DNA from: Legionella oakridgensis ATCC 33761 = DSM 21215 | GTDB taxonomy: Bacteria > Pseudomonadota > Gammaproteobacteria > Legionellales > Legionellaceae | DNA: 64,000 bases | Assembly (NCBI RefSeq): GCF_000512355.1 | Contig: NZ_CP004006.1 | Span: forward strand, 549,001 to 613,000 | Reading direction: 5' to 3' | Shown here: positions 4,889 to 35,790 of the stretch, one piece after another | Position numbering within the stretch: the stretch's first letter is position 1 | Layout of the letters: the number at the start of each line of letters is the position of its first letter | Made by a program: the position numbers and the translations under genes | The notes under the pieces: generated by a model | What the model was told of the DNA's origin: nothing | Seen by the model: only the letters and a program-made list of their open reading frames with translations | The model's database searches: none

Positions 4889-5062
4889 TTCTTAAAAAGA
4901 CCATTTTCAAACAGTATCATTTGATATCAAAAAGAATCATTAACTCATTGTATTTTATTAATTTTTATCATCTGCTATACTTCAAAAAATATCAAACGAT
5001 TTCATGTGAGAACTCACGAAAGTACACCTAGAAGTACACCTAATTTTTTAAGTGGTGCAATA

Positions 5063-6307
5063 ATGGAAAGACAATTTACAGACGCCTATATTCGATCGCT
5101 AAAACCAAGATCTTCTCGCTATGAAGAATTCAGAGATGGGGGTTTTGGTATACGAGTCACCCCCAAAGGGCTAAAAACATTTCTATACCGTTATAAAATC
5201 AACGGCCAAAGGCATTTCATCACTATAGGCCACTACCCTGCTATGAGTTTATCCGAAGCCAAGAAACGTTTTATCGATTTAAGCGACATACGCCATGGCG
5301 AAGTAAATCCTAAAGAGCAGATCGCAGAACAAAAACAGAAAGACCAAAGTACCGTAAAAAATCTGATACTCCACTGGTACACCAACTACATTGAAAAACA
5401 CCGCGCCCAACCGCTGCAAATCTGGCAGCATATCAAAGTGGATATCATTCCCCTATTGGGCAATAAAAAACTAGAACACTTAAAAACGAGGGAAATAACT
5501 CAAGCTCTCGATAAAATCGTTGGTCGCGGTTCACCCGTACATGCCAATAAAGTACTGAGCACACTAAAACAAGCATTCAACTACGCAGTAAGCCGAGGCG
5601 AAATGCTGCTAAACCCTGCAATGACCATACGAGCCAGAGACATAGGTGGTATAGAAAAACCCAGAGAACGCTATTTAACCCTCGATGAAGTAAAAACCCT
5701 ATGGCAATTCCTAGACAGCGAAGAACATGGAACATCTTTCCAGATCCGAGCAGCTCTGAAAATCATCCTACTTACAGGCGTAAGAACAGGAGAAATCCGA
5801 GTAGCCAAATGGTCAGAGTTCGACTTCGAAAACTCCTTATGGACTATCCCAGCCGAGAATACCAAAACCAACATAGTCATGAGAATCCACCTCACAGAAA
5901 TGACTAAAAAGGTATTGAGAGAACTCAAAGCACACAGCAATTCAGAATATGTCATTACAGGCGCAGACGACCAAAGTATTTTATCAGATCGGGCTATGCC
6001 AAGAGCTGTAATCCGAATACAATCACGAGTCGGTATTCCGCACTGGACAGCACACGACTTAAGACGAACCTTTGCAACCCAGCTTGGTGAGGCTTTGCAT
6101 ATTGATCCCGTGGTGATTGAGAAATGCTTAGGGCATAAGATGCCTAAAATAATGGCCACCTATAATAAGAATGAAATGCTGCCTCAAAGAAAGGAAGCCC
6201 TTATTCGGTGGGAAGAACGTATTAAGCAACTTATAGAATCAGACTCCCCCAAATTAGCTGTATATTGCAAAGATGCATTAAACAAAGCAGAAATTACGAT
6301 TGGATAA
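5063..6307 (+). CDS. P4-type tyrosine recombinase (island integrase)
   Basis: Site-specific recombinase that would integrate and excise the island at the tRNA-Pro gene. The N-terminal arm-binding DUF4102-type domain (FTDAYIRSLKP, FRDGGFGIRV, YPAMSLSEAKKR) is followed by a core-binding helical domain and the catalytic domain. Counting from an upstream ATG at 5006, the catalytic residues are R260 (LLTGVRTGEIR), H350 and R353 (TAHDLRRTFATQLG), H377 (CLGHKM) and Y386 (ATYNKNEM). The ATG at 5063 is preferred because family members begin close to the arm domain. The stretch 5006-5062 contains a direct repeat (AGTACACCTA twice) and may be non-coding. The next gene starts 6 bp after the stop. Confidence 0.93.
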   Translation: MERQFTDAYIRSLKPRSSRYEEFRDGGFGIRVTPKGLKTFLYRYKINGQRHFITIGHYPAMSLSEAKKRFIDLSDIRHGEVNPKEQIAEQKQKDQSTVKNLILHWYTNYIEKHRAQPLQIWQHIKVDIIPLLGNKKLEHLKTREITQALDKIVGRGSPVHANKVLSTLKQAFNYAVSRGEMLLNPAMTIRARDIGGIEKPRERYLTLDEVKTLWQFLDSEEHGTSFQIRAALKIILLTGVRTGEIRVAKWSEFDFENSLWTIPAENTKTNIVMRIHLTEMTKKVLRELKAHSNSEYVITGADDQSILSDRAMPRAVIRIQSRVGIPHWTAHDLRRTFATQLGEALHIDPVVIEKCLGHKMPKIMATYNKNEMLPQRKEALIRWEERIKQLIESDSPKLAVYCKDALNKAEITIG

Positions 6308-8061: not shown

Positions 8062-9769
8062 CATTCCGCATTAAAATTTACGAATAATATTTCCAGTAGG
8101 GCTCACCAAGGCATTCGAGAATTATTCTATGCCTGTCAGTTAAGTTTATAACCAAGTTAACACTGTTATTGACGGTTAGAAGATCTACACCCTGAAAGCA
8201 AGAGAAGACCCATCTTGCCGTAGGTTTTTGCGTTGGTTTTTTTTCATATCAGGGAAGAACATCGCCTTAGCAACAAGTTGGATTCTAATTAAGTGCTCAA
8301 TAGCAGCATATACCATTAGGCTACAAGTCATTACCATAAGCAACGACTCTATTCTTTCTGGCTTTTTTAAGTACAAAGATGAGGTGAGGAACTCAGGACT
8401 TTTTAAAAAACGAAAACCGCGTTCCACAGCTTGTTGTGATTTATATTCATCAAGTAAAAACTGCATGCTCATAGCATCTGATAGGTCATTGGTTGCAAGT
8501 ATAAAAAGTCCGGTGTTTTGCTCTGCCTCTTCGCACAAATTCAGCTTTGTACATAAGTTACCGGATATTTGGTAAGTTATTTTTACAGGACTGTTGGTAC
8601 TAGGTCGTCCCCTCCGCTCTTGCTTTGTATGCTTAACAAAATCAATGTTTTCTACACTAACGAACTTTTGGCTTTCAAGCCAAAGACTAAGAGCTTTACT
8701 AGCATCTTTATCACAAGCAAAGGAACGGCGGTATAATTTTTTAAATGACTTCACTGCCTGTTCTGTATCCCTTGAAATAGCCTTATGCAAAATGCTGCTT
8801 TCTCTTTGCTTGGCCTGTTGGCTACGGACTAACAACCATCTCTGAGCTATACCACCATATGAAGCAGCAAACCAAGAACCAGAGTAACCATTTTCTAGAG
8901 GCTCCCAGTCGACATTCGACGCTTGCTGTATGATAGATTTTGCTTCAACTAACTTTTGTGGTACCCGTGTAATAAATAGCTGTTTTTGCTCAGATAAAGA
9001 ACGAATGCACTCTTCTGTATAAAGTGCGGCGTCTCCTATCAAATAGGTATTGTTGTACGCTGCTTTTAAACTTGATAAATGAGATTTCACCAATTGTTTG
9101 AATGTTTCCATATCATTTGCATTGCCACTGCAGGCTTGCATATATAATGGAATGCCAGCTTGATTTTCCGTAAGTAAGTTTAAAACAACTTGATTTAACT
9201 CGGGGCGGTGGTCGCGACTATACCCTTTGGTTATTTTTATACACTGGGCATCAATATCTTGTTCGTACTGACCATCAGTATGAAAGCTGGTTGTATCGAT
9301 ATTCATACTTTTACAATCAAGACCTAAATAATCAGTTACCTTCAAGGCAAGACCTGCATAAATCTTTGAAACACCTTCATCGTAAAACGCATCCAAGCTT
9401 CGACCGGTTGCGTCATCGTTTAGTTGCTCAGGCATAACTCCTGAACCAAGCAAATGTTCCGTTGCTTTTTCTGAAAAGTATTCTGGGTACATATGTAATG
9501 TACGGCTAACAAAGCCCAAACCGTTTAATATCATTGCGGTTAAAAGCGTGCCATGAGATAGCCCACTTTGATTTGATTTTTTTGGAATTAAATTGTCAAT
9601 ATATTCCTGTAAGCCTATTGATTCACAAAACCCTGCAACCAAGCCAAGGTGATCAATGCTTTGGCTAACATAATTCGTACTATCCATTACTCAACTCCAA
9701 AAGGGAGTAATAGATCAAAATGGCAGAGGTATGTCAAGAAAGTTTAATTTAATTTTCTACTGCGGAATG
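8062..9769 (-). mobile_element. IS1634-type insertion sequence
   Basis: The transposase gene is flanked by imperfect terminal inverted repeats: CATTCCGCATTAAAATT starting at 8062 and, reversed, TTTTCTACTGCGGAATG ending at 9769. No convincing target duplication is seen (flanks end in TATATCCCA and begin ACGGCTTG). The right flank cuts into a SnoaL-like gene whose 5' part is missing, so an adjacent deletion probably accompanied or followed insertion. Confidence 0.8.
8078..9687 (-). CDS. IS1634-family transposase, frame break near the C-terminus
   Basis: DDE transposase with an N-terminal DUF4277-type domain (LGLVAGFCESIGLQEYID) and catalytic segments NIDTTSFHTDGQYE, YLIGDAALYTEE and SQQAVERGFRFLKSP. 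The uninterrupted frame stops at 8185 after an atypical tail. Reading one base back at a run of eight A residues (coding strand; 8237-8244) restores the family-typical ending PTQKPTARWVFSCFQG and continues to a stop at 8078. The break could be a one-base deletion, a sequencing error, or productive -1 slippage on A8. Upstream lies the terminal repeat; no passenger gene is present. Confidence 0.88.
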
Positions 9770-16098: not shown

Positions 16099-16737
16099 AT
16101 GATTCTTAAAAGAGGAAAGAAGAATATATTTCTTAGAAAAAATCTAGATTATTTGCTTGCGCAGCACTCTCTAGATATTAAAAACTTATCCATTGAAACT
16201 GGTGTCCCTCCTGCAACTTTATCTCGTCTACGAAAAGATGGAAGTAACCCTACTTTATCTTCTATTGAGCCGTTACTTGAATTTTTTAGAGTTGATATGG
16301 ATTCATTTCTTTATCAGGATATGTCTAGTTTAAGCTATCAAAATAAAAAGAGAATGGGAGATCTTGTTCATATTTCTGTCTATTCTATTGAAGAAATATC
16401 AAAAGATAGAAGTAAGGCAAAAGTATCAAAATTTATTGGGGCTGCAGGGATAACTGGAAAAAATGTATTTGGAATATCTATTAATAGCGAAGCCTTGGCT
16501 CCTGCATTTCAAAATAACTCTATTGTTATAATAGACCCAGATCTTAAACCAATTGAAGGAGATTATGTGTTATGTTGCCTAGGAGCTGGGGAAGATATTC
16601 CCGTATTTAGGCAATTGTTTATAGATGGAAATGATTACTACTTTAAACCAATCAATCCTGGGTTTGGAGAAATGAAACACTACGAATATTTTAAAATTCT
16701 AGGAGTAGTTATTAAATCAATTGAGTCATATAGATAG
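16099..16737 (+). CDS. XRE/S24 (LexA/CI-like) repressor
   Basis: 212 residues. An N-terminal helix-turn-helix (LSIETGVPPATLSRLRKDG) is followed by a C-terminal S24 fold (VFGISINSEALAPAF, SIVIIDPDLKPIEGDYVLCC). The S24 Ser lies in INSEAL, but the Lys of the autocleavage dyad is not obvious, so it may act as a sensor without self-cleavage. It is separated from the downstream VUT transporter gene by 5 bp and is probably its regulator or operon partner. Base composition is markedly AT-rich from here to about 25.7 kb. Confidence 0.8.
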   Translation: MILKRGKKNIFLRKNLDYLLAQHSLDIKNLSIETGVPPATLSRLRKDGSNPTLSSIEPLLEFFRVDMDSFLYQDMSSLSYQNKKRMGDLVHISVYSIEEISKDRSKAKVSKFIGAAGITGKNVFGISINSEALAPAFQNNSIVIIDPDLKPIEGDYVLCCLGAGEDIPVFRQLFIDGNDYYFKPINPGFGEMKHYEYFKILGVVIKSIESYR

Positions 16738-16742
16738 AGAAA

Positions 16743-17480
16743 ATGAAAAATAAAGGAATACAAGAATTTCAACCCTCTCATATTCGCCCCAGAGATTACA
16801 ACCATTATAATTATATATATTTTTTTATGATGTTATTTATCACTATTTTTATTGCATGTGATATAACAGCATTTAGAATGACTACATTATTTGGAGCGAA
16901 TGTACCTGTAAGTGGTTTAATTATTCCAATAGTATTTGCATTGGGAGATTTAATAGCAGATATTTATGGCTATCAAATATCAAGAAAATTGATTTGGAAT
17001 GCTCTTATTTGCCAGTTCATTTTTGGGATAGTAATTACATTAGCAGTTAATTTCCCAAGTCCAGAAAATGATTTAAATAATTTTCACTATAATGAGGCTT
17101 TCAAGCATATAATTAGGACTAATATTACGAGCTGCATGTCAGTTTCAAGTGGAATGTTTACTAATGCATTTCTTATGTCAAAGATTAAGATTTGGATGAA
17201 TGGTAAGCGTTTTTGGATAAGAACTATTTTATCTAGCTCAATTAGTGAGTTTGTACTCTGTTTTGTTGCATACACCACACTGTATCTAGGTTTAAAAAGT
17301 CCAATAGAAATTTGGAAAATTATCTTTAGTGTTTGGTATTATAAATTATTATTTGCTTTATTTGCTGCTCCATTAGTTTCCATCGTTGCTTCTAAAATAA
17401 AAGAATGGGAAAAAAGCGATGTATTTGATTATGGAGTAAATTACAATCCATTTATTTACAATTATGATGAAAAAATATAA
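16743..17480 (+). CDS. VUT-family (YhhQ-like) transporter, queuosine-precursor type
   Basis: 245 residues with about six membrane segments. Characteristic VUT segments are present: IPIVFALGDLIADIYGYQISRKLIW and the later NAFLMSKIKIWMNGKRFWIRTILSSSISEF. Known relatives import preQ0/preQ1 for tRNA queuosine synthesis; the substrate here is not shown. It lies 5 bp after the XRE/S24 regulator and 55 bp before the next gene, suggesting one operon. Confidence 0.82.
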   Translation: MKNKGIQEFQPSHIRPRDYNHYNYIYFFMMLFITIFIACDITAFRMTTLFGANVPVSGLIIPIVFALGDLIADIYGYQISRKLIWNALICQFIFGIVITLAVNFPSPENDLNNFHYNEAFKHIIRTNITSCMSVSSGMFTNAFLMSKIKIWMNGKRFWIRTILSSSISEFVLCFVAYTTLYLGLKSPIEIWKIIFSVWYYKLLFALFAAPLVSIVASKIKEWEKSDVFDYGVNYNPFIYNYDEKI

Positions 17481-18093: not shown

Positions 18094-19446
18094 TTAAAAA
18101 AATGAGTAGGACATATATAATATGTCCTCTTCTTCGAGTTTGAGAGCCATTTTAATTGCTTCAGTTTTATTTTGATCATGAGTTGTTAAGGGAAGAGTTG
18201 CTTCTCCAAGCTCAGAATATAGTTTTTTTCGGGTTCTGTCTGGAAATGAATCCATATGTTTTTTAATTGTGGAGATGTCACCTCTTTGTATTGGCCCCGT
18301 TAATGATTGTCTTGGGGATAAAGTTTGCTCAAGATTAGAAACGGTTCCTCTCATTATATTAGTAATTATATGCATTGCCATTATATCTTCGACGCCCGCA
18401 TCTTTTAGACAAACAAGAGCTTGTTGTGAAAGTGTGACTAAATAGTTCGAAGCGAAAACACCTGCTGCCTGGTATAAAGATTTTTTATTATCAATTCTGT
18501 AACCGGTTAATCTCATGGAAGTAAAAAAAGGGTTTGCTGTGTATTGAGTTGTTTCATTTACCCTTGTTACATAATATGTGTCTCTATGTTGGATACTTTT
18601 GAGAGCGATTCTAATTGCTTCAGTTTTATTTTGATCATGAGTTGTTAAGGGAAGAGTTGCTTCTCCTAGCTCAGAATATAGTTTTTTTCGGGTTCTGTCT
18701 GGAAATGAATCCATATGTTTTTTAATTGTGGAGATGTCACCTCTTTGTATCGGCCCCGTTAATGATTGTCTTGGGGATAAAGTTTGCTCAAGACTAAAAA
18801 CCGTTCTTCTCATTATATTAGTAATTATTTGCATTGCCATTGCATCTTCGACATCTGCATCCTTTAGACAAGCAAGGGCTTGTTGTGAAAGTGTGACTAA
18901 ATAGTTCGAAGCAAAAACACCTGCTGCATGATATAAAGATTTTTTATTTCTATTAATTCGATAAGTAATTGATCCTATAGAAGTAAAAAGTGGAGCTATT
19001 ACAGATAGAGCCTCACTATCTCCCTCTAGAGCACAATATGTGCCGCTATACTGTTCAACGCTTAATTTAGGTTTAGCAAAACTTCTCATTGGATGTGCAC
19101 TTGCTATGTAGCATCCTCTCTTCTTAATTGAAGTTAAGGCATCTGAGGTAAGAGAACCACTACAATGCATAACTATACTATCTTTTTCAATAAATCTGTT
19201 TGTAACTAGAGTTTCGCATGTAGAAGATATAGCATCATCAGGCGTTGTTATGAAAGTAATATTCGCGGCAGGTAATTCATCAAGTGAAGTACAATATTTA
19301 CCTTCACCAATAAATTCAATTGCGGAGATAGAACTTTCAATAGATGTATTAAAAATGGCACCAACTTTAACTAATTTGTTTTTTACCAATAGACGTCCGA
19401 TTGTTTTTCCTAGATGGCCAGCACCAATAATATTTATTAAAAGCAT
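18094..19446 (-). CDS. Rossmann/DUF2520 protein with a duplicated DUF2520 domain
   Basis: 450 residues. Residues 1-150 form a Rossmann NAD(P)-binding domain (INIIGAGHLGKTIGRLL) like that of DUF2520 oxidoreductase-type proteins, which resemble pyrroline-5-carboxylate reductase. Normal family members have one helical C-terminal DUF2520 domain and about 280-300 residues. Here that domain is present twice, starting near residues 163 and 316, each with KKSLYxAAGVFASNYLVTL and PRQSLTGPIQRGDISTIKKH. The duplicated DNA is almost identical with an offset of 459 bp. The protein may be a natural in-frame duplication that still folds, or a dead end. Its substrate is unknown. Confidence 0.78.
   Translation of the reverse strand: MLLINIIGAGHLGKTIGRLLVKNKLVKVGAIFNTSIESSISAIEFIGEGKYCTSLDELPAANITFITTPDDAISSTCETLVTNRFIEKDSIVMHCSGSLTSDALTSIKKRGCYIASAHPMRSFAKPKLSVEQYSGTYCALEGDSEALSVIAPLFTSIGSITYRINRNKKSLYHAAGVFASNYLVTLSQQALACLKDADVEDAMAMQIITNIMRRTVFSLEQTLSPRQSLTGPIQRGDISTIKKHMDSFPDRTRKKLYSELGEATLPLTTHDQNKTEAIRIALKSIQHRDTYYVTRVNETTQYTANPFFTSMRLTGYRIDNKKSLYQAAGVFASNYLVTLSQQALVCLKDAGVEDIMAMHIITNIMRGTVSNLEQTLSPRQSLTGPIQRGDISTIKKHMDSFPDRTRKKLYSELGEATLPLTTHDQNKTEAIKMALKLEEEDILYMSYSFF
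18145..18960. repeat. Tandem direct repeat, 459-bp offset, inside the DUF2520 gene
   Basis: Two near-identical copies of about 340 bp or more, for example TTGCTTCAGTTTTATTTTGA at both 18155-18180 and 18615-18640. The offset is divisible by three, so the frame is preserved. The two copies differ at scattered positions, so the duplication is not brand new. Confidence 0.88.
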
Positions 19447-19653: not shown

Positions 19654-19893
19654 ATGGAATGTATCATAGAATTTCAAAAACCATTGGTTCGATATGAATT
19701 TAGTTGTAGAACCAAACAGAAAATCTTGCTTGAAGTATTATTAAAATATAGCAAATTAAACTTAATTGATCTTGCTTTAATGTTGGATATATCAATAGCA
19801 ACTTTACTAAATGCCTATAAAGGTAAAGAATTTCTTCAGGGAAAACCAGCAATTAATTTAGTTCATCTTTTGTTTATTTTTTTTGGCGAATAG
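19654..19893 (+). CDS. Small helix-turn-helix protein upstream of the RiPP precursor
   Basis: 79 residues. The segment LIDLALMLDISIATLLNAYKG fits an XRE-like helix-turn-helix, and INLVHLLFIFF the closing helix. GAGGAATTTTTAAC precedes the ATG. It lies 152 bp upstream of the double-glycine precursor gene and in the same direction, so a regulatory role for the cluster is a reasonable guess. Short length and AT richness limit confidence. Confidence 0.6.
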   Translation: MECIIEFQKPLVRYEFSCRTKQKILLEVLLKYSKLNLIDLALMLDISIATLLNAYKGKEFLQGKPAINLVHLLFIFFGE

Positions 19894-20045
19894 TGAGAAT
19901 AATATAATCAAAATTTATTTATAAAATGCAACATAAATAGTTGTTATTTTTTTTAATAAAAAATTTATGGGAAATATAAAGAAAATAACTTCATAAAAAT
20001 TAAAAGAATTTTATGTTATATTTTTAATAAAAATAGGAGGTTGAA

Positions 20046-20222
20046 ATGGAAGACAATAACGTTCGTGTTTTAGCATATACTCTGGCGAGAATAATAGATA
20101 ATAATGAATTATCTAAAGTATCTGGAGGTGCATCTCAAATGACTCATTCAGAGACGGTTAAAGGAACGGGTGGGAGCGGTCAAGGTGTGGATGTTGTATA
20201 TGATCAAAGTGTTGATTGGTGA
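20046..20222 (+). CDS. RiPP/bacteriocin precursor peptide with double-glycine leader
   Basis: A 58-residue gene with an excellent ribosome site (AGGAGG, 5 bp before the ATG). Residues 1-28 make a typical double-glycine leader: acidic-amphipathic helix (VRVLAYTLARIIDNN), then ELSKVSGG, where the conserved L-S-x-V-S-G-G pattern is the recognition and cleavage site of C39-peptidase exporters. The 30-residue core starts ASQMTHSET, contains TGGSGQG and ends VYDQSVDW. It holds no Cys, but has Ser/Thr hydroxyls, one Lys and acidic residues, the groups joined by graspetide-type ATP-grasp ligases. The ligase gene follows 73 bp later, and the C39 exporter lies 3.3 kb downstream. The core has no microviridin-like PFFARFL motif, so it would be a new sequence class. 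Confidence 0.85.
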   Translation: MEDNNVRVLAYTLARIIDNNELSKVSGGASQMTHSETVKGTGGSGQGVDVVYDQSVDW

Positions 20223-20241
20223 GCATATATTAGAAATATAT

Positions 20242-20258
20242 GGGCTCTAAAAGAGCCC
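20242..20258 (+). terminator. Stem-loop between precursor and ligase genes
   Basis: GGGCTC/GAGCCC stem around TAAAA, 20 bp after the precursor stop, followed by an A-rich rather than T-rich stretch. It may be a partial terminator or mRNA-stabilising structure that keeps precursor message in excess over the enzymes; this is inference. Confidence 0.5.
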
Positions 20259-20295
20259 TAAAAAGTTAAAAAATAATTAATAGATATTGTCTAAA

Positions 20296-21411
20296 ATGGA
20301 AAAAATGAAATTTCTAATTTTAACTGAGCCTGATGATACTCATGCTGTTATTGTAAAAATTGCCTTAGAAAAAATAGGGCATCATGTAAGGCTTTTGTTT
20401 ACTGCTGATCAGCCAACTAAACAGAAAAATTCAGTTTTTATTGATAATGATAGTTATCAATGGAAGAGCACGGATAAACATGGCACTATTTTAGATCATG
20501 ATTATGATGTCGTATGGTGGCGACGTGTACGGAAACCCTATTTACCAGAGAAAATTATACATCCAGAAGATTATAAATTTGCTATAAGAGAAAATAATTT
20601 ATTTTATGAATCACTAACTAATAATATAGCGCCTAATGCCTGGTGGATTAATGCTAAAGAAGCATCAATTAGAGCAAATTCTAAATTATTACAATTAAGA
20701 ATTGCTAGTCAGTGTGGAATGTTAATTCCAACTACACTTTGTTCGAATGATCCAAATGATATCCGTTATTTCCTATTAAAACATGAAAAAGATGGGGTTA
20801 TATATAAACCATTATGTTCAAATTTTTGGTTTGAAGAAAAGCAAGTTAAGATTGCATACACATCAAAAATAACTTTTTTAGATCTCCCCAATAATAAATT
20901 ATTGCAACTTTTGCCTGGAATATTTCAAAGAGAAATCAAGAAAAAATATGAACTAAGAATTACTTGTTTTGGTGACTATATTATTGCTGCAAAATTAAAT
21001 TCCCAAATTCATCCAGAAGGTAGAATTGATTGGAGGGCAATACCTGAAGGAAAAATGAATATCGAGCCCTATAATCTACCTCATGATATATCGAATAAAA
21101 TACGAGAATTTATGCGAAGGATTGGAATAATTTTTGGCTCATTTGACTTTATTGTTACTCATGATGATAAATATATATTTCTTGAAGTAAATGAACAAGG
21201 TCAATTCTTATGGATAGAAGAATATAACTCAAATTTCAGAATGTTAGATATTTTCATTAATTTTATTATTAATAGATCCAGGAATTTTGTTTGGAACCAA
21301 CATGAATTTAGGCACGAAATTAAAATATATAAACATGAAGTTAGACATATAGTTAATCAAAATATTAAGAATCATGTTGATTTAAATAGTACACAAATAA
21401 AAAAATCGTAG
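20296..21411 (+). CDS. ATP-grasp peptide ligase (MvdD/GwsG-like, RiPP maturation)
   Basis: About 370 residues. Numbering from the in-frame TTG at 20287, the pre-ATP-grasp domain includes VVWWRRVRKPYLP (R79, R80), the WxRR hallmark of ATP-grasp RiPP maturases. The ATP-grasp domain follows: SKLLQLRIASQCGMLIPTT, VIYKPL, FQREIKKKYELRIT and GSFDFIV, then FLEVNEQGQFLW (E300, N302), the Mg-binding acid and Asn. Known relatives form ester or amide side-chain crosslinks in microviridins and other graspetides. Placement directly after a double-glycine precursor supports the same role here. The ATG at 20296 is preferred to the TTG. The Lys/His-rich tail is unusual. Confidence 0.83.
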   Translation: MEKMKFLILTEPDDTHAVIVKIALEKIGHHVRLLFTADQPTKQKNSVFIDNDSYQWKSTDKHGTILDHDYDVVWWRRVRKPYLPEKIIHPEDYKFAIRENNLFYESLTNNIAPNAWWINAKEASIRANSKLLQLRIASQCGMLIPTTLCSNDPNDIRYFLLKHEKDGVIYKPLCSNFWFEEKQVKIAYTSKITFLDLPNNKLLQLLPGIFQREIKKKYELRITCFGDYIIAAKLNSQIHPEGRIDWRAIPEGKMNIEPYNLPHDISNKIREFMRRIGIIFGSFDFIVTHDDKYIFLEVNEQGQFLWIEEYNSNFRMLDIFINFIINRSRNFVWNQHEFRHEIKIYKHEVRHIVNQNIKNHVDLNSTQIKKS

Positions 21412-21418
21412 AGACATT

Positions 21419-22474
21419 ATGATAAAAATATTTATACTGACATTTTTTTTGGTATTTTCTATTGACTTACCAGCATCAAGTATAGTTGATTTATATGGAG
21501 ATGATTCTGCTTTGTCAGAGATAATATTAAAAAAATACTCAAAAAGAGTTGGTGAAATTGAATCGTTATTTCAAGAAAAAATTAAAAAAAAATTACAGAA
21601 TAATGATTTGGATTTTTCAATGGGTAAAGTTATAGAAAAAAAGAATAAATTAATTGAGGAAATAAAAAAAGAAGGTGGTTTTTTATATGTAAATTTTAGT
21701 ACGGTTTTATATCCTGGAAGTAATAATAAATACACTACTATAGAAGTTGTTAATAAAAATCAACCAGATAGGCTTCGATTTGTCACATCAGAAATTAATG
21801 TTAAAAATGATAATAATAAAAAAGATGATTTAATAAATCAAATGATTATTTTTAGAAATATTGAAATAATATTAATCATAAATAATAAATTAAATATAAA
21901 AAATATGACATGTCCTGTTTATCACTGTATTAGTGGATTCAATCACGTTAAATTAAAGCCTTATTTGAAAATTTTTAATGATGGTGCAATCAAAGAAAAA
22001 AAACTAATTATTGATACTTTAAATAAAGATCATAATTCGGAAAGGCGAGCTGCTGCTGCCTTTTTGATAGGTCATTTTAATGACCCAGAAGAAATTATTA
22101 GTTTGTTATTACCCCATATTAATGATAACAATAATATTGTTAGAAATAATGTTATGCGAGTTATTGCTTCTACTATGTCTAAAGCAAAAATATATCATAT
22201 TAATATGATACCATTTTTAGATTTACTAGATTCCCCGGAAAATACTGATAGAAATAAGGCATTGTATATACTCTCAAAAGCAATATTATCACCTTTTTCA
22301 AAAAAGAATATCATTATAAAAAATGGTGGTAATAAATTATTGGCATTATTGCGACTTAAACAACCTAATAATCATGATATTTCTTATGAAATCTTAAAGA
22401 AAGTTAGCGGAAGAGATTTTGGAGATAAAAATATAGATTCTTGGAATAAATGGCTAAGATCTGTCCAAAATTGA
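21419..22474 (+). CDS. Exported HEAT-repeat-like protein of the RiPP cluster
   Basis: 351 residues with a clear signal peptide (MIKIFILTFFLVFSIDLPAS), so periplasmic or membrane-attached. After a charged helical region and a beta-rich middle, residues ~205-300 show HEAT-like helical pairs (ERRAAAAFLIGHFNDPEEII, NNIVRNNVMRVIASTMSKAK). It begins 7 bp after the ATP-grasp stop, so it is in the same operon. Possible roles are immunity to the peptide, or a scaffold during maturation and export; neither is shown. The sequence is very AT-rich and unlike its distant neighbours. Confidence 0.68.
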   Translation: MIKIFILTFFLVFSIDLPASSIVDLYGDDSALSEIILKKYSKRVGEIESLFQEKIKKKLQNNDLDFSMGKVIEKKNKLIEEIKKEGGFLYVNFSTVLYPGSNNKYTTIEVVNKNQPDRLRFVTSEINVKNDNNKKDDLINQMIIFRNIEIILIINNKLNIKNMTCPVYHCISGFNHVKLKPYLKIFNDGAIKEKKLIIDTLNKDHNSERRAAAAFLIGHFNDPEEIISLLLPHINDNNNIVRNNVMRVIASTMSKAKIYHINMIPFLDLLDSPENTDRNKALYILSKAILSPFSKKNIIIKNGGNKLLALLRLKQPNNHDISYEILKKVSGRDFGDKNIDSWNKWLRSVQN

Positions 22475-22559
22475 TAATATCAAATATATCTATAATATAT
22501 TTTAAATTTTTTATTTTAATGATAGCAATCATTTTTAAATAATTGTCGAAATATCTATT

Positions 22560-23578
22560 ATGGAAGAGATTAATTTATTTAGAAAAGAAGTAATTGAAAA
22601 TAAAAAAAATCAAAATCATGGATATATCTATATCAATACTCCTCCAAAATATATGACTATATCTATTGGGATTACAGTCATAGTAATATTGGTAGCTTTG
22701 TTTTTTATTTTCGCTGAATTTTCAGAAAAATTTAATGTGTTAGGATATCTTAATTCAACTGAAGCGGTTGTTAACGTTTACCCTAAAACCAAAGGAATAA
22801 TTATTAAAAGCTATTTTCATAACGAAGATAAAGTAAGAAAGGGAGATAAACTATTTTTAATTGATACCTCGTATATTGGCATACATAAAAAGGAAGATAA
22901 TAAGATATTTAAATTCTTGGAAAAAAGAAAAATATCTATTGAAAATGAGATTAAATATAAAACGCAATATCTGTATGAATTAGAAAAATTATTACAGAAA
23001 AATATTTATCATTGACTGTATACAATAAAAATAAATCAGAGCTAGTAGAGCTTAAAAATAAGAAAAATATTATTGATATGGATATCATTAAACATAAACA
23101 AAAAGACTCGTATGTAATTTATTCCCCAATAGATGGTATTATTTCTAGTGTTATGTATAAAAACGGACAATATGTAGATATACATAAGCCGTTATTAAAG
23201 ATAGCTCCTTGTAATTCTGACCTGGTGGCTGAATTATTTATTCCAATAAAAAAATCAGGTTTCTTGAATAAAGATAATAAAATTATTATTAGATATGATG
23301 CTTATCCGTATGAGCGTTTTGGGAGCTATAAAGCTACGGTAAAAGAAATTAGCCAAAGCATTATGATGGATAATGAAGAAGAAAAACCAATATTAATTGG
23401 AGAGCCTTATTATAAAATTATAGCAAAATTGGATAAACAATATGTCATGATATATGGGAAAGAAAAAAAATTGCAGCATGGAATGACAATATCAGCAGTT
23501 ATAGTTGGTCAAAAGAAAAAAATTTGGCAATGGGTATTAGACCCTTTATATAGCTATTATGGAACGCTATTTTTATGA
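22560..23578 (+). CDS. HlyD/CvaA-type membrane fusion protein (frame break at 22998-23002)
   Basis: Adaptor for the C39 ABC exporter. One membrane segment (ISIGITVIVILVALFFIFAEF), a first half-barrel with the lipoyl-like YPKTKGIIIKSYF and VRKGDKLFLID, a coiled coil, then the second half (YVIYSPIDGIISSVMYKNGQYVD) and the membrane-proximal barrel. The frame stops at 23015 and resumes from 23012. Adding one A to the A5 run at 22998-23002 joins the parts without gap (LLQKKYLSLTVYNKNK). A functional gene is therefore likely if the base call is wrong. The stop overlaps the start of the exporter gene as ATGA, a coupling signature. Confidence 0.8.
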
Positions 23579-25669
23579 ACTTTAATAAAAAGATTTGTTT
23601 TGAAAGAAGTTATAAACTACCAATTATTCTTCAGGATGAAATTGCAGAATGCGGTTATGCATGTCTCGTGATGATAAGTAATTTTTGGGGGCATGATCTT
23701 GATCTACAAGCGATTAGAAAAATTAAAAAAATATCTAATAGAGGTATTACTTTGTTAGAATTAAAGTATTTATTTGAAGATTTGGGATTTATAGTACGAG
23801 CATTGAAAGTACCATTAGATGAATTTCATATGATTAGGTGCCCTGCAATATTACATTGGAATATGAATCATTTTGTTGTTTTGAAGAAAGTTAAAAAAAA
23901 ACTCTATTATAATTCACGATCCAGCAATTGGAGTTAGGTATTGTAATATGGAGGAGGTCTCTAAATTATTTACTGGCATTGTCTTGGAAGTTGAAAGATC
24001 AATAAATTTTAGGAAAATTAAAAATAAAAATAAATTCAATTTATATGAATTATTTAAAAAAGTTAGTGGTATAAATAAATTTTTTATTTTCTTAATTTTA
24101 CTTTCATTATCTATTGAAGTCTTAAGCTTATTAAATCCTTTATTCATACAATATATAACAGATAATGTAATTATTTCCAACGATGTAAGTAATTTGTACG
24201 TTATCTCAATAGCTTTTATTATATTAATATTTGTTCAAATTTATACGGAATATATTCGAGGTAATATGATAATATATTTAACGAAGAACTTAACTGAAAA
24301 ATTTTCTTCAAACGTGGTTAAATATATTTTAAAACTACCTTTGGATTTTTTTGAAAAAAGACATAAAGGGGATATTCAATCAAAATTTAATTCTATCGAT
24401 CAAATTCAGAAAAAAATTAGCACAGACTTTGTCAATACTGTCTTAGATGGGTTAATGGTCATCATTAACATAACAGTAATGTTTATTTATAATAAGATGT
24501 TAACAATGGTAGTAATTTTTACTTTGTTTATCTACTTTACTATAAGATATACGACTTATCATGTTGTAAAAAAACAGACAGAATCATCGATATTTCAATA
24601 TGCCAAATCTGCATCAATATTTCTTGAAACTTTGCAATGCATAATTCCTATCAAATCCTTCTTGAAAGAGCATATCAGATTTAATGCTTGGAGAAACTCA
24701 TATATTAATTTTTTAAATGCAGATATTAGAGTAGCTAAGATTAATGTTATCTATAACATTATAAATCAATTTTTGTTTAATATAGAGCATATTTTTGTGA
24801 TATGTATTGGTGCATATCTCGTTTTAGTAAATAAATTTTCCGTAGGAATGCTAATTGCTTTTCTTTCTTATCGTCTCTCCTTGGTTAATAAGGCATCTTC
24901 ATTTATTCAAAATATATTTGATTATAAATTAATTTCAATTCAGTTAAGACGGTTGAGTGACATATTATTTCAACAACCAGAAGTTATTGATACAGGTTTT
25001 GGTAATATTGAACAAATAAAAGGAGCATTATCTGTAAAAAATATTTCTTTTAGATATACTCTAAATGATAAATATATTTTAAATAATATTAGTTTAAATA
25101 TAGAAGCTGGTGAAAAGGTTGCGATTATTGGTCCTTCTGGATGTGGTAAATCTACATTTTTAAAAATTATGATGGGATTGCTTGATAAAACGGAAGGTGA
25201 AATTTTTATTGATGGTATATCTATTAAAGATTTTGGATTAAGAAATTATAGATGTCTAACAGCTTGTGTAATGCAAGAAGATTCGCTAATGAGTGGTTCA
25301 ATATTAGATAACATTACTTTTTTTGATGAAAATATTGATATAGAAAGAGTTTACAATGTGGCAAAACTATCCTTTGTGCACGATATAATATGTAAATTAC
25401 CAATGGGATATGAAACTTTGATTGGTGATATGGGATCAACTCTATCGGGAGGGCAGAAACAAAAAATATTATTGGCTAGAGCATTATATAAAAAGCCTAA
25501 AATATTATTTTTAGATGAAGCAACAAGTCATTTGGATATAGTAAACGAAAAAAATATCAATAATTCCTTAAAATCTTTAAGGATTACCCAAGTTATAATT
25601 GCTCACCGCTTGGAAACTATTCAGATGGCTGATAGGGTAATAGATCTAGAAAGTATTAATAATTTGTGA
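23575..25669 (+). CDS. C39-peptidase-containing ABC exporter (CvaB/LagD-like; frame break at 23893-23901)
   Basis: Bifunctional transporter that cuts double-glycine leaders and exports the peptide. The N-terminal C39 domain has the catalytic Cys in DEIAECGYACLVM, the His in LHWNMNHFVVL, and the Asp in IIIHDPAIGVRY once the frame is corrected. A six-helix membrane domain follows, then an ATPase with Walker A (GPSGCGKST), Q-loop (CVMQEDSLMSGSI), signature (LSGGQKQK), Walker B (ILFLDEATSHLD) and AHR switch. An A9 run at 23893-23901 shifts the frame; removing one A gives KKVKKNSIIIHDPAIG. The reading frame is otherwise intact. It ends the cluster and matches the leader of the 58-residue precursor. 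Confidence 0.88.
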
Positions 25670-25916: not shown

Positions 25917-27146
25917 CTCTGTGCAGGACAAAATTTCATGAAGCAGCGCCTGTTATGAAATTAAGAGGAATAAGATGTTGGATAATTTTTCTAAATTCGG
26001 CAATTTTGCAACCAAAAGAGCTGAGTTTATCGCGAATAAAATCGAGACCATATTTGAAAAAGCTGGTTCTTGGCCTTAGTTGTTTTTTAATGGCTGTCCA
26101 CTTAATTGGCCGTTTAATTGCCTGCCACTCCCCGGTTTTATGAGCCCAGGCAAAGGCAATAGCCATAAAAGCGAGCATTTTTTCTAATCGTGCAGAATGA
26201 GTAACCTGCGTTGACTCAAACTGAAATCCCCTCTGTTTAAAGGCTTGAAAAAGACATTCGATTTCCCACCGTCTTAAGTAGGTAGCTAGAGCAACTTTAG
26301 GGTTGGCATTAGTCACGATAATCATCAATTCATTGCGTTCGTTTTTACTGGCGGCAAGATAGAGTTGATGCTGAAACAAAGTCAGGCGCATATGAAAGAC
26401 ATGATGTACTCTTGGACTTAATCCTGCAAAGATTTCACCGGCGGATTTATATTTTTTGGCCCGGATTTTGACAGCCGTGTCATGCTTGATTCTCATATAA
26501 AAGGGTATATTGTGCTCTTGAAGCCAGGATATAAACGTTTTGTTGGGAAACTCCCTATCGGCAAGAACCGCTTCAATCGGATGAGTACCAAATTGCTGGA
26601 TAAACCGCTTTAATAATGCAATTTGTTCCCTACCCGTCGAATGGCCCGCTTTAGGAAGCAAACGCCAATAGATAGGGATTGCAATACCTTCATAACAAAT
26701 GGATAGCATGAATATATTGATTTTGCTTCGACCCCAAAACCAATTGGTTCGGTCAATGGATAAATAGAGTTTATCTGAGGAATGAAAGAACAATAAAAAT
26801 AACCAGCGGGCTATAAAATCAAAATCAATCTCAAAGTCGCGAAAAAACCGCTGAATCCTTTTATAGCGTGATTCAATCAACGCCAATGAAGGCATAAAAA
26901 CCGAAATCTCTTTAAAATTAATGCTCCGGGCCAGCAAAAAACCAATTAAAGCTCGCGCAAAAAAATTAATTCGAGCCTTGTGCCAACCTAAATGTTGACC
27001 TAATATGCCCTTTAACTCGCTGATGTTCTTCATTTATACCTCCTTTTTCGCGAAATGAAGTATAAATTATTTGAATTTAATCAGCGAGTTACCTTTGCTT
27101 CACCTCTAAATCCTCAAAAACCATCTAAATTTTGTCCTGCACAGAG
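25917..27146 (-). mobile_element. IS4-type insertion sequence with 9-bp target duplication
   Basis: Terminal inverted repeats CTCTGTGCAGGACAAAATTT (left) and its complement (right) enclose one transposase gene; total 1230 bp. The target CAAAGAATT is duplicated at 25908-25916 and 27147-27155, so this is a clean simple insertion. It separates the RiPP cluster from the kinase-like gene. Confidence 0.95.
25936..27033 (-). CDS. IS4-family transposase
   Basis: 365 residues. Catalytic segments are LYLSIDRTNWFWG (first Asp), EAVLADREFPNKTF (second Asp) and YLRRWEIECLFQAFKQRGF, which matches the IS4 signature Y-x2-R-x3-E-x6-K with the catalytic Glu. The frame is complete, AAAGGAGGTATAA precedes the ATG, and both element ends are intact, so it may be active. 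Confidence 0.93.
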   Translation of the reverse strand: MKNISELKGILGQHLGWHKARINFFARALIGFLLARSINFKEISVFMPSLALIESRYKRIQRFFRDFEIDFDFIARWLFLLFFHSSDKLYLSIDRTNWFWGRSKINIFMLSICYEGIAIPIYWRLLPKAGHSTGREQIALLKRFIQQFGTHPIEAVLADREFPNKTFISWLQEHNIPFYMRIKHDTAVKIRAKKYKSAGEIFAGLSPRVHHVFHMRLTLFQHQLYLAASKNERNELMIIVTNANPKVALATYLRRWEIECLFQAFKQRGFQFESTQVTHSARLEKMLAFMAIAFAWAHKTGEWQAIKRPIKWTAIKKQLRPRTSFFKYGLDFIRDKLSSFGCKIAEFRKIIQHLIPLNFITGAAS

Positions 27147-29357: not shown

Positions 29358-30645
29358 GGCTCTACACCAATTAAGGGGGCACTTTAATCAAATTAGTCTA
29401 GACTAAGTCCTTGATTTAGCGATCAAAAGGAGATTAAAGTGCCTAAGAACAATCTTATCCTAAATTTACCTGGATTTTCCATATTAAAAGTGAGTGGGTA
29501 TCAACCCTTATTATTAGATGTAACTTATAACCGATTAGCTCGGTGTAGTCATTGCCAAAGTAAACAGGTTCGCAAGAAATCATCGTATATAAGAACAGTA
29601 CACCATGAGTTAATAGGGCATCGTCGAAGTGTATTGAGGTTTAAAGCGTATAAGCTTTATTGTCATACTTGTTGTCGCTATGGTAATCAACAGTTTCCCG
29701 GTATCAATAAACATCAACGTGCTACTTGGCGAGCTCAAGCTGCAGTGTTTCATGAGCATAGCCGCGGGGTATCGCAAAAAGATTTATCAGAGCGTTATAA
29801 GAAAGGAAAAGCGACCATAGAGCGCTGGTATCAGCGGCATTATGAAGAGCAACATCGAGAATTAATCAATAAACCATGTCCTGTGGTACTGGGTATTGAT
29901 GAACATTTTTTCAGTAAGAAAGAAGGGTTTGCAACTACTTTTTGTGACCTAAGAAAACATAAGATATTTGATGTGGTTCGTGGCCGTCGTGAGCAAGAAT
30001 TAAAAGAATATCTCCAGCAATTACCTGGAAAAGAACGTGTCAAAGTGATTTGTATGGACTTGAGCAGTACGTACCGTTCCTTAGTAAAGAAGTACTTTCC
30101 TAATGCTATGATAGTGGCTGATAGGTTTCATGTAATCCGTTTAATTCAACATCAGTGTATGATGACCTGTCGAGAACTCTCCACTGAAATTAAAAACAAT
30201 AGAGGTATCTTAGCCTTATTAAGAACAAGACCTGATAACTTAAGTGATGAGAAGAAAGTCAAAAGAGATGCGTTTTTCACTGAAAATCCTGCAATAGAGG
30301 CTATATATCAATTTCAGCAACAACTGCACTCACTATTAATGAAAAGGGCGCTAACACAGCATGAGTGCCGTAAAGTAATACCTACTTTCTTAGAAATGTT
30401 GGCTGAGTTAAAGCAAAGTGGTTTTAAAGCATTAGCATCATTAGGTAAAACACTTTGGGCTTGGAAAGATGAAGTGGCCAGAATGTGGCGATTTAGTAAG
30501 TCAAATGGAATAACAGAAGGCTTTCATCGCAAAATGAAACTCATTCAGCGAAGAGCTTATGGTTTTAGAAATTTTGAAAATTATAGAGTACGTGTTAAGG
30601 TCCTCTGCGGGTGATTAAAGCTGCCCCCTTAAATGGGAAAGAGCC
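29358..30645 (+). mobile_element. ISL3-family insertion sequence, copy B (8-bp target duplication)
   Basis: 1288 bp, same length as copy A. The target AAAATTCC is duplicated at 29350-29357 and 30646-30653, the 8-bp size expected for ISL3 elements. The right terminal repeat matches copy A; the outermost left repeat differs (GGCTCTACACCAATTAAGGG instead of GGCTCTTTCCCATTTAAGGG). Confidence 0.95.
29439..30614 (+). CDS. ISL3-family transposase (copy B)
   Basis: 391 residues, identical to the copy-A protein except for Ile instead of Val in SSYIRTVHHE. The zinc-finger, helix-turn-helix and DDE segments are intact, with the same GTG start and AAAGGAGAT ribosome site. Near-identity and the intact target duplication indicate recent transposition. 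Confidence 0.95.
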   Translation: MPKNNLILNLPGFSILKVSGYQPLLLDVTYNRLARCSHCQSKQVRKKSSYIRTVHHELIGHRRSVLRFKAYKLYCHTCCRYGNQQFPGINKHQRATWRAQAAVFHEHSRGVSQKDLSERYKKGKATIERWYQRHYEEQHRELINKPCPVVLGIDEHFFSKKEGFATTFCDLRKHKIFDVVRGRREQELKEYLQQLPGKERVKVICMDLSSTYRSLVKKYFPNAMIVADRFHVIRLIQHQCMMTCRELSTEIKNNRGILALLRTRPDNLSDEKKVKRDAFFTENPAIEAIYQFQQQLHSLLMKRALTQHECRKVIPTFLEMLAELKQSGFKALASLGKTLWAWKDEVARMWRFSKSNGITEGFHRKMKLIQRRAYGFRNFENYRVRVKVLCG

Positions 30646-34563: not shown

Positions 34564-35790
34564 TCAGATTCCTGATAACACAGGGATAGTACCAGAAAAT
34601 ATAGATTGGATGGAACTGATAATGCTTAATCCTTGTTTACGGATCGTACTGATAAATCCTCGGATACGAGCAAATTGTTCAGCGCCTTGAGCGGTCCGAA
34701 AACCACCGGATATTTTTTGTTTGCATTTCATCATTCGTAAATCACGCTCAGCATCATTATTGGTAAATGGAACTGCCAGATCATGAAAAAACCGTAAAAC
34801 GTCTTGTTTGTAATGAAATAAACGCCACAAGAGGTTGTGACCTGTCCGTCGAGGTTGTCGACCCTGTTTGCCTTTGCATGGCAATGGCGGCAGCGTTTCA
34901 TGATACGCCAGCCCATCTCGAATAATCTTCTTGTAGATGTTGGTCAACCGCTTGATGCGAGCAACAGGTATTGCATGATGTTCATTAAAATGACGACAGC
35001 GAAGAGCAACACGTAATAGTCGGGTCATAGCCTGTGCCCATGGTTCTTTGTCATGCTCGGTTATTGCTTTTAATTCATGCAAGTGATGCTGGTTGCATAG
35101 GGCATGCTCCACACCTCCCAAATTGTAATAACTTTTCCAGTGATCATGAATGACGGTACCTGAAAGGCCATCCAGTAATGATTTTCGTTTTGGAGATATG
35201 TGATAATAAGTTGCCGTTTTAGTCGATGCCACATGCAACCATTGTGTTTTTCCGGCCACACGAAACCCTGTTTCATCCAGGTTTTTTACGGCAGCAGTTT
35301 TGACTGCAGACAATACCGATTCTTCAAATGATGCCAATGTATCAAAGGCAATCCGGTTATATCCAGTCCGTGTTGCAGTAGCCAGTTGAATTCCGTACAG
35401 GTCATAAAACAACTGTTGCAGCCTGTCTTCTGGAATAAAATGCTGATATTGATAATACACGCTCCAACTACGAATAACTTCACCGTATTGGACAGGGGCA
35501 AGAACACCTGCAGGAAATGCTGCTGTTATCGTTTTATTACAGCACTCGCAATATTTTACTTCAGCCTGATGTTCCGTGACTTCAATTTTGGGTGGTGGAA
35601 TATCAAAAACCTGGCGCTTCACAATTCCAATCACCGGCGTTGAAACTAATGAACCATAACAATCCGGGCATGTTAGCAATAGTCGTACGGGGTAGTTTGC
35701 CTAACCCGTCACTTGAGGGGGGCTTTGAGCTGTTGCTGCTATTCTTGTTCAGTCGTTTTTCCAGCTCTGCTATTCATGCAGCTATTTGAT
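34564..35790 (-). pseudogene. Decayed IS66-family transposase (TnpC)
   Basis: The long frame (34564-35679, 371 residues) contains the IS66 zinc-ribbon (CEC and CNK cysteines), KNLDETGFRVAGKTQWLHV, VIHDHWKSYY and TNNDAERDLRMMKCKQKISGG, the DDE acids and C-terminal signature. The N-terminus survives in another frame (ELEKRLNKNSSNSSKPPSSDG at ~35700-35770). The Gly/Lys-rich linker of about 35 residues normally between the two parts is missing. A real out-of-frame deletion has therefore occurred. No tnpA/tnpB genes and no clear IS66 ends are visible. Confidence 0.85.

What the first reader, a model, noticed from the sequence alone, without database searches (positions are those of the whole stretch)
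19654..25669. Candidate new RiPP/bacteriocin cluster in a Legionella-like genome
In one AT-rich block, all on the + strand, lie a small HTH gene, a double-glycine precursor, a WxRR-type ATP-grasp ligase, a signal-peptide HEAT-like protein, a CvaA-type fusion protein and a C39-peptidase ABC exporter. Spacings are short from the ligase on (7, 85 and -4 bp), so they read as one functional unit. ATP-grasp ligases beside C39 exporters are established for graspetides and related RiPPs. The core sequence and the HEAT-like partner do not match any class I know.
Basis: partly seen in the sequence, partly recalled or inferred. Interest (0 to 1): 0.92.

Follow-up and report, generated by a model that had tools for sequence, protein, structure and literature searches.

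The report
Legionella ladder-hairpin graspetide gene cluster
A Legionella-type genome carries genes for a small peptide and an ATP-grasp enzyme that is predicted to staple it into a ladder-like hairpin; the same gene set recurs across the Legionella family, but in this copy both exporter genes are split by frame changes, so the peptide may not be exported here.

Summary
The RiPP reading holds, but the class is known: graspetides. The unit is a GG-leader precursor (20046-20222), an MvdC/D-type ATP-grasp ligase, a secreted HEAT/armadillo protein, and HlyD and C39-ABC exporter genes. The upstream 'HTH' ORF has no homologue in the related loci.

The ligase occurs in 35 of 56 genomes of the family. 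Precursor cores follow a rule: T-x3-T-x3-T-G, loop of 6-7, D-x3-D-x3-D. A ladder of at least 2+2 rungs is in 67 of 71 cores (shuffled mean 4.3, maximum 10), and outer donor and acceptor mostly appear or vanish together. This predicts two or three nested ester links. A Legionella pneumophila graspetide with two precursors, each dehydrated three times, is published (PMC9576775); whether it is this family I could not check.

Not seen in the papers I could read: the matched-rung code, Cys in some donor rungs (possible natural thioesters), and a secreted HEAT partner inherited with the ligase rather than the exporter. New variant of a known kind.

The parts
20046..20222 (+). GG-leader precursor, 58 aa; leader MEDNNVRVLAYTLARIIDNNELSKVSGG, core ASQMTHSETVKGTGGSGQGVDVVYDQSVDW
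   Evidence: leader motif R-V-L-A-Y-x-x-A and GG shared with related precursors; core fits the 3+3 ladder; single match in its genome
20142..20171 (+). predicted donor ladder of the core (T5-HSE-T9-VKG-T13-G14)
   Evidence: (display of the window core), placed on the sequence
20190..20216 (+). predicted acceptor ladder of the core (D21-VVY-D25-QSV-D29)
   Evidence: (display of the window core), placed on the sequence
20287..21411 (+). ATP-grasp ligase of the graspetide synthetase type (TTG start as listed; ATG at 20296 fits relatives better)
   Evidence: TIGR04187 3.2e-53, TIGR04184 3.6e-52 (below cut-offs); family profile matches PDB 5ig9 1.1e-57, 7m4s 3.5e-55; D245 W246 R247 nearly invariant, full length
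21419..22474 (+). protein with Sec-type N-terminus, a possibly POTRA-like N-terminal domain and HEAT/armadillo repeats
22560..23015 (+). first part of the HlyD/CvaA-type periplasmic adaptor, ends at a stop in this frame
   Evidence: residues 1-148 match residues 1-148 of the 339-aa intact relative in L061
23012..23578 (+). second part of the HlyD-type adaptor, in another frame
   Evidence: matches residues 153-338 of the same relative
23575..23937 (+). C39 peptidase part of the exporter, ends at a stop in this frame
23948..25669 (+). membrane and ATPase part of the C39-ABC exporter, in another frame
   Evidence: aligns to residues 124-695 of the 696-aa intact relative in L061

Best explanation
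The window encodes a GG-leader precursor and an MvdC/D-type ATP-grasp ligase that likely joins Thr side chains to Asp side chains of the core at four-residue steps, giving a predicted hairpin with three nested ester rungs (a graspetide). Shown: the genes, their homology, the core rule over 71 cores, the two split exporter genes. Inferred: the leader guides the ligase, which would phosphorylate each Asp so that the Thr of the same rung attacks it; predicted pairs, counted from the first core residue, are T13-D21 (inner), T9-D25 and T5-D29 (outer). Inferred: in relatives with a whole exporter the C39 domain would cut after GG and the ABC/HlyD pair would export the peptide. Inferred, with low confidence: the Sec-secreted HEAT protein acts in the periplasm as a protective or peptide-holding partner of the product. 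In this genome both exporter genes are split by frame changes, so the copy likely makes the modified precursor without exporting it, unless these changes are sequencing errors.
For: Ligase: graspetide-maturase profiles at 3e-53 to 2e-51 and solved graspetide ligases 5ig9, 7m4s (AMdnB), 5ig8, 7mgv (CdnC) at 1e-57 to 1e-44 with the family profile. Core rule: period-4 ladder with at least 2+2 rungs in 67 of 71 cores and at least 3+3 in 37; 200 shuffles give mean 4.3, maximum 10, and mean 0.0, maximum 2; periods 2, 3, 5, 6 give 7, 2, 3, 9 of 71 with at least 2+2, within their nulls. Database proteins: 18 of 18 cores not in the first set fit 2+2 or more (shuffled mean 1.4, maximum 6), though the search profile itself contained the rungs. 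Rung matching: outer donor and acceptor both present 46, both absent 16, mismatched 9 of 71. T+S fill 180 of 209 donor slots and 15% of other core positions. Operon conservation. HEAT tied to the ligase: rho 0.76, against 0.35-0.37 with the exporter genes, over 31 loci without the window. Published: a L. pneumophila group 8 graspetide, two precursors with one ligase, each dehydrated three times (PMC9576775).
Against: No mass or structure data exist for this cluster. The ligase is below the curated cut-offs of the four NCBIfam graspetide models that it hits. In the template fit 9 of 71 cores mismatch at the outer rung, 8 lack the middle donor, 3 the inner donor and 4 the inner acceptor; donor and acceptor counts agree in 53 of 71 (permuted mean 36.8, maximum 49). 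The fit maximises matches, and related sequences are not independent, so p-values are too small. Sequence does not tell nested from crossed pairing. HEAT similarity does not follow core similarity once ligase similarity is taken out (partial r 0.04, p 0.35), which speaks against a core-specific immunity protein. The non-Legionellaceae relatives looked at have similar leaders but other cores, and no HEAT gene was found beside them. In 6 of 55 loci with room for it HEAT is not beside the ligase. PMC13097080 reports a graspetide whose ligase alone does nothing, so the ligase here may need a partner.
Confidence: 0.8

Rival explanations
1. The window copy is a decaying remnant: precursor, ligase and HEAT are still open, but the exporter module is dead and nothing is secreted.
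For: Two separate frame changes in the two adjacent exporter genes; a DDE_Tnp_1 transposase directly downstream and other insertion sequences around.
Against: Each piece is an open frame that aligns nearly end to end to its part of the intact L061 genes at 54-71% identity, so the breaks are recent or errors; the C39 break lies in a stretch with a run of nine A, where sequencing errors or slippage are common (recalled); precursor and ligase are full length; a second, intact C39-ABC gene exists elsewhere in the genome, whether it could serve this precursor is unknown.
Confidence: 0.4
2. The product is a linear class II-type bacteriocin; the ligase acts elsewhere or adds amino acids rather than making cross-links.
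For: Weak matches of the precursor to PF10439 and TIGR01847; NCBI names two homologues 'bacteriocin' (P0246, P0248).
Against: Both matches are below cut-off; the four-residue ladder with matched rungs is not explained by a linear peptide; the ligase is of the graspetide type and lies beside the precursor.
Confidence: 0.07
3. Role of the mature peptide: a serine-protease inhibitor, as for microviridin and plesiocin, rather than a bacteriocin.
For: [quoted passage not shown]
Against: The loops vary freely, without a conserved reactive residue that I could see. Genes beyond the five mapped ones were not examined.
Confidence: 0.25
4. The HEAT protein is a maturation or export partner rather than a protective one, comparable in role to the partner protein MirC of rosaritide.
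For: Inherited with the ligase (rho 0.76); present at four loci with at least 5.5 kb of downstream sequence and no exporter gene found (L091, L092, L099, L112); partner-dependent graspetides are published (PMC13097080).
Against: All 41 aligned HEAT proteins have a hydrophobic N-terminal stretch by a simple rule (for some rows I had set the start at an internal codon), which would put them in the periplasm, away from a cytoplasmic ligase.
Confidence: 0.3

Closest known systems
   Same: Legionella, one ATP-grasp enzyme with two precursors, three dehydrations on each, placed in the core for precursor A (digestion of B failed)
   Different: Sequences not seen, so kinship with this ligase family is unknown; ring sites were not mapped there; no accessory protein is mentioned in the passages seen
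Branch 1 graspetides of PMC8939145 (passages seen)
   Same: Most of their cores carry TxxxTx(6-10)Dx(1-4)D, which the two-rung form here would match; their loci often hold TPR-repeat proteins, also helical repeats
   Different: Cleavage site there mostly not GG and loci with metallopeptidases; no third rung or matched-rung rule in the passages seen; the main text has no occurrence of Legionell or HEAT
OEP6-1, fuscimiditide and amycolimiditide (stem-loop graspetides; PMC12291112, passages seen)
   Same: Nested cross-links in a hairpin: three, two and four respectively
   Different: Here rungs are spaced by four residues on both arms with a loop mostly of 6-7; no methyltransferase among the window unit's genes; GG leader with C39 exporter
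Microviridin-type ligases (5ig8, 5ig9; names MdnB/MdnC recalled), AMdnB, CdnC
   Same: Same ATP-grasp family over nearly the full length
   Different: Leader RVLAYxxA instead of PFFARFL (PMC8939145 passage); a single ligase per unit as a rule; other core motif (recalled)
Rosaritide (MirA/MirB/MirC; PMC13097080: abstract, sections 5 and 7, and passages seen)
   Same: Accessory protein tied to the ligase; three macrolactones
   Different: MirC is a PpiC-type isomerase-like protein that copurifies with the ligase; its links interlock; the HEAT protein here is predicted to be secreted

Membership tests
Graspetides (omega-ester-containing peptides) | ATP-grasp ligase of the graspetide synthetase type beside the precursor | tested here: met
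Graspetides (omega-ester-containing peptides) | Precursor with leader and a core with conserved Ser/Thr/Lys donors and Asp/Glu acceptors | tested here: met
Graspetides (omega-ester-containing peptides) | Side-chain ester or amide links in the product (loss of water per link) | not testable with these tools
NCBIfam MvdD, MvdC, SAV_5884 and grasp-with-spasm families (TIGR04184, TIGR04185, TIGR04187, TIGR04192) | Score above the curated cut-off | tested here: not met
   177.5 of 475, 174.8 of 425, 181 of 350, 103.4 of 230 bits
Class IIc bacteriocin (PF10439) | Score above the gathering cut-off | tested here: not met
   18 of 27.1 bits
Graspetide group 8 (networks of published surveys) | Ligase and core inside the group 8 network and consensus | not testable with these tools
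   group 8 consensus and accessions are in papers or supplements not held; group 8 is said to co-occur highly with NHLM-type transporters
C39 peptidase-containing ABC exporter | C39 domain fused to ABC membrane and ATPase domains in one open frame | tested here: not met
   all domains present but over two frames in the window; one ORF of 640 aa or more in 36 of 43 other loci with an HlyD hit
HEAT/armadillo repeat proteins | alpha-solenoid of helical repeats | tested here: met
POTRA domain | beta-alpha-alpha-beta-beta fold | tested here: inconclusive

The most novel reading that the evidence does not exclude
This Legionellaceae family makes ladder hairpins whose chemistry is written rung by rung, and in some members Cys takes the donor place, giving natural thioester rungs, a link described in the graspetide papers seen here only as non-native. 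Cys fills 6 of the 29 donor slots that are not Thr/Ser, against 20 of 1620 other core positions; all six have an acceptor on the same rung, and five of the six cores have no second Cys for a disulfide. The window's own core has Thr in all three rungs.
Probability: 0.2. Interest if true: 0.7.

Novelty: new variant of a known kind. Interest (0 to 1): 0.5.

Why it matters
If right, a bacterial family known for living inside amoebae (recalled) shares one peptide-stapling system whose number of staples can be read from the sequence. That makes ring number and pairing in a little-characterised graspetide branch predictable and testable, offers candidate natural thioester links, and points to a secreted HEAT/armadillo partner of unknown role that is inherited with the ligase. 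What the peptides do for Legionella is open.

Tried and rejected
HTH ORF as regulator of the unit: no Pfam or NCBIfam match over cut-off and no homologue among the ORFs of the gathered loci. Defence-system reading: no PADLOC match for ligase, HEAT or HTH at E 0.01. Viral origin: one scan of viral contigs found no relative of the ligase. Plasmid origin: of 57 plasmid records with a ligase hit one is a Legionella, and it alone has the HEAT gene; that L. adelaidensis record carries dnaA, dnaN and rpmH, so it is likely a chromosomal piece. HEAT as a core-specific immunity protein: partial correlation with core similarity is nil. Omega-amide rungs: Lys sits in 1 of 209 donor slots. Foldseek on the HEAT model gave one PDB match under 1e-3, a designed armadillo protein; the lists show an alpha-solenoid, not a function.

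Print: searches (with Legionella among the terms; without) gave PMC9576775 as the only Legionella graspetide that I found; of the others listed with both words or with Legionella, PMC12668002, PMC12542786, PMC11288058 and PMC8877877 were seen as listings only. Lee 2020 and Ramesh 2021, which define group 8, were not read (the latter is not held); their consensus may already contain the ladder, so 'not seen' is not 'new'.

Limits of the counts: 71 cores come from 49 of 62 loci with unique ligases; 97 loci were reduced to 62 as duplicates, and ligases under 200 bits were left out. 'Legionellaceae-type' means these 62 without L116-L119; a few of them are MAGs titled only Gammaproteobacteria or Proteobacteria. 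The precursor rule was a regular expression fitted by eye on the first set. L090 was cut at the wrong GG by the script and counts as a miss, although its sequence shows a 3+3 ladder. At period 2 two cores had 3+3 against a shuffled maximum of 1. Database searches listed 120 of 413 HEAT and 120 of 530 ligase homologues; statements on names refer to those, and some names are cut off.
Full report
Setting. The window is G000:C1:549001-613000 of a 2.77 Mb genome in two contigs. The nearest named ligase relative in the scan of named genomes is Legionella feeleii (73%), followed by other Legionella, so I treat it as a Legionella; its species is not given. The unit sits in an AT-rich stretch (GC 26-31% from 16 to 26 kb, against 34-46% elsewhere), with a DDE_Tnp_1 transposase just downstream (25936-27033).

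What is there. Precursor 20046-20222, ligase 20287-21411 (the ATG at 20296 fits the relatives), HEAT protein 21419-22474, HlyD pieces 22560-23015 and 23012-23578, C39 piece 23575-23937 and ABC piece 23948-25669. The ligase matches graspetide maturases (TIGR04187 3.2e-53, TIGR04184 3.6e-52, TIGR04185 2.3e-51, TIGR04192 1.4e-29, all below curated cut-offs), and its family profile matches the solved ligases 5ig9 (1.1e-57), 7m4s AMdnB, 5ig8 and 7mgv CdnC. The motif that PMC13097080 calls DFR (passage) may correspond to DWR here (D245 W246 R247, nearly invariant); that pairing is my reading. The precursor shows a weak bacteriocin-type GG signal.

The exporter is split in this copy. The two HlyD pieces align to residues 1-148 and 153-338 of the 339-aa HlyD of L061. 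The C39 profile hits two frames, positions 2-100 at window 23617-23907 and 93-131 at 23885-24001. Of 43 other loci with an HlyD hit, 42 have it as one ORF; the exception L097 (L. tunisiensis) is broken in all its larger genes. ABC ORFs are 640 aa or longer in 36 of those 43; the rest are L097 and six on contigs of 3.7-13.7 kb. Whether the window's breaks are real or assembly errors I cannot tell; one lies by a run of nine A. A second, intact C39-ABC gene lies elsewhere in the genome in another RiPP-like cluster; whether it could serve this precursor is unknown.

Distribution. The ligase is found in 35 of 56 genomes of the window's family and in 1 of 35 genomes outside it. A scan of named genomes gave 63 loci: 49 titled Legionella, Tatlockia, Legionellaceae or Legionellales, 7 unclassified Gammaproteobacteria or Proteobacteria MAGs, and 7 others (Massilia, Pseudoduganella, two Kordiimonadaceae, Caulobacter, Eilatimonas, a deltaproteobacterial MAG). 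After removal of duplicates and weak ligases 62 loci remained, 58 of Legionellaceae type, the window included. Among these 58: precursor within 1 kb upstream in 44 of the 53 with at least 600 bp upstream (of the 9 misses, L095 has a precursor that the rule overlooked, and L099 has one downstream); HEAT within 1.5 kb downstream in 49 of the 55 with at least 1.3 kb there (median gap 5 bp); HlyD in 30 and ABC in 31 of the 38 with at least 5.5 kb there (L069 has an exporter upstream instead). The Massilia and Pseudoduganella loci have exporter genes but no HEAT hit and another core (QRPRCTCSNGVPDACDA), though the leader is similar.

The core rule. Consensus of 30 precursors: MExxxxRVLAYxLAKxIxxxxLxxVSGGxxxxTxxxTxxxTGxxxxxxDxxxDxxxDx. 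In 71 unique cores (the window's included) a ladder of Thr/Ser at every fourth residue, a loop, and Asp/Glu at every fourth residue is present with at least two rungs on each side in 67 and at least three in 37; 200 shuffles give a mean of 4.3 and at most 10, and 0.0 and at most 2. Spacings of 2, 3, 5 and 6 give 7, 2, 3 and 9 of 71 (null means 5.9, 5.2, 4.1, 3.6; maxima 14, 12, 10, 11). A template fit gives 3+3 in 37 and 2+2 in 14 of 71; in the third (outer) rung donor and acceptor are both present in 46, donor only in 3, acceptor only in 6, neither in 16 (Fisher 1.6e-8, not corrected for kinship); the middle donor is missing in 8, the inner donor in 3 and the inner acceptor in 4; donor and acceptor counts agree in 53 of 71 (permuted mean 36.8, maximum 49); the loop is 6 or 7 residues in 57 of 71; Gly follows the inner donor in 56 of 71. 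The fit maximises matches, so some agreement is built in; the shuffles carry the same kind of bias and set the yardstick there. In the short forms the outer rung is the missing one, since the T-G and the loop length remain. Of 26 database hits, 8 were known and 18 new; all 18 fit (12 with 3+3), shuffled mean 1.4 and maximum 6, with the caution that the search profile contained the rungs. A similar two-donor, two-acceptor signature, TxxxTx(6-10)Dx(1-4)D, is published for another branch of ligases (PMC8939145, passage).

Mechanism proposed. From established graspetide chemistry (PMC13097080, section 5): the ligase phosphorylates an Asp or Glu side chain and guides a Ser, Thr or Lys to attack it. 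Here each Asp of the acceptor arm would be joined to the Thr or Ser of the same rung. For the window core ASQMTHSETVKGTGGSGQGVDVVYDQSVDW the predicted pairs, counted from the first core residue, are T13-D21 (inner), T9-D25 and T5-D29 (outer). Nested pairing is chosen because the rungs drop off from the outside and because nested hairpins are known (OEP6-1 three, fuscimiditide two, amycolimiditide four; PMC12291112, passages); crossed pairing is not excluded. Leader removal at GG and export by C39-ABC/HlyD follow from the families and are untested; here export would likely fail if the frame changes are real.

Cysteine in rungs. Six of the 29 donor slots without Thr or Ser hold Cys, against 20 of 1620 other positions (Fisher 3e-6, kinship not corrected); all six have an acceptor on the same rung. 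In the outer rung Cys keeps its acceptor in 3 of 3, other replacements in 3 of 19, one of them the mis-cut L090 (p 0.013, post hoc); in the middle rung every replacement keeps its acceptor, so nothing follows there. Five of the six cores have a single Cys. None of the 18 further cores has Cys in a rung. Graspetide synthetases can make thioesters with other donors, described as non-native (PMC13097080; PMC12291112). Natural thioester rungs are therefore possible; replacement of Ser by Cys under weak constraint is the plain alternative.

Two modules. Over 31 loci with all four genes whole (the window is not among them), pairwise identities correlate strongly between ligase and HEAT (0.76) and between HlyD and ABC (0.83) but weakly across the two pairs (0.35-0.38). 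All these correlations reach the floor of the permutation test (p 0.002), as expected for genes that share a history; the contrast in size is the finding. HEAT follows the ligase, not the core (HEAT-core given ligase r 0.04, p 0.35); the ligase follows the core weakly (given HEAT 0.15, p 0.044); ABC follows the core beyond the ligase (0.33, p 0.004). So exchange occurs between HEAT and HlyD. This favours a general partner of the product or its synthesis over a core-specific immunity protein; a periplasmic protective or holding role is my choice, with low confidence.

What is known. A L. pneumophila graspetide, Gra-7, was produced by refactoring: two precursors, one ATP-grasp enzyme, three dehydrations each, group 8, rings not mapped, digestion of precursor B unsuccessful (PMC9576775, section 11 and passages). 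None of the names visible among the 120 ligase homologues is L. pneumophila (some names are cut off), and the supplements could not be read, so kinship is open. PMC8939145 (passages only) has no occurrence of Legionell or HEAT in its main text; PMC13097080 has neither and says that group 8 has high co-occurrence with NHLM-type transporters. I found no paper on a HEAT protein in such a cluster.

Verdict. Not a new RiPP class; a variant of graspetides with a readable ladder code, a secreted partner found only in Legionella-type genomes in the part of the lists seen, and, in the window, a split exporter. On checking I lowered interest slightly, because a similar two-rung signature is published and the group 8 consensus is unseen.

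Noticed in passing
L129 (G000:C1:1841000-1850000): A second RiPP-like cluster in the same genome: GG peptide (4492-4686, -), intact C39-ABC protein of 734 aa, a second ABC protein, and by eye a PqqD-like, a sulfotransferase-like and an HPr-kinase-like protein (the last three names are recalled, not searched).
   Followed up: partly
window 18094-19446, - strand: DUF2520 protein with an internal repeat: two stretches match PF10728 and about 120 residues occur twice in frame.
   Followed up: no
window 3627-4802 and 29439-30614: Two near-identical ISL3 transposase copies; further transposase genes at 8185-9687, 25936-27033 and 34564-35679.
   Followed up: no
window 3332-3408 and 5006-6307: tRNA-Pro followed by a phage-type integrase gene, possible border of an integrated element; attachment repeats not searched.
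   Followed up: no
window 16099-17480: In the same AT-rich block: a Cro/C1-type HTH plus S24 peptidase-like regulator and a putative vitamin uptake transporter (PF02592).
   Followed up: no
L061, L110 and L069: Arrangements with two precursor-ligase pairs and one HEAT gene; in L069 an exporter lies upstream.
   Followed up: no
L124 (NZ_LR134435.1): L. adelaidensis record labelled plasmid carries dnaA, dnaN, rpmH, rnpA and yidC, so it looks like a piece of the chromosome.
   Followed up: no
L093, first precursor (4406-4582): Inner donor place reads G and inner acceptor place reads S in the alignment, a joint loss of one rung.
   Followed up: partly
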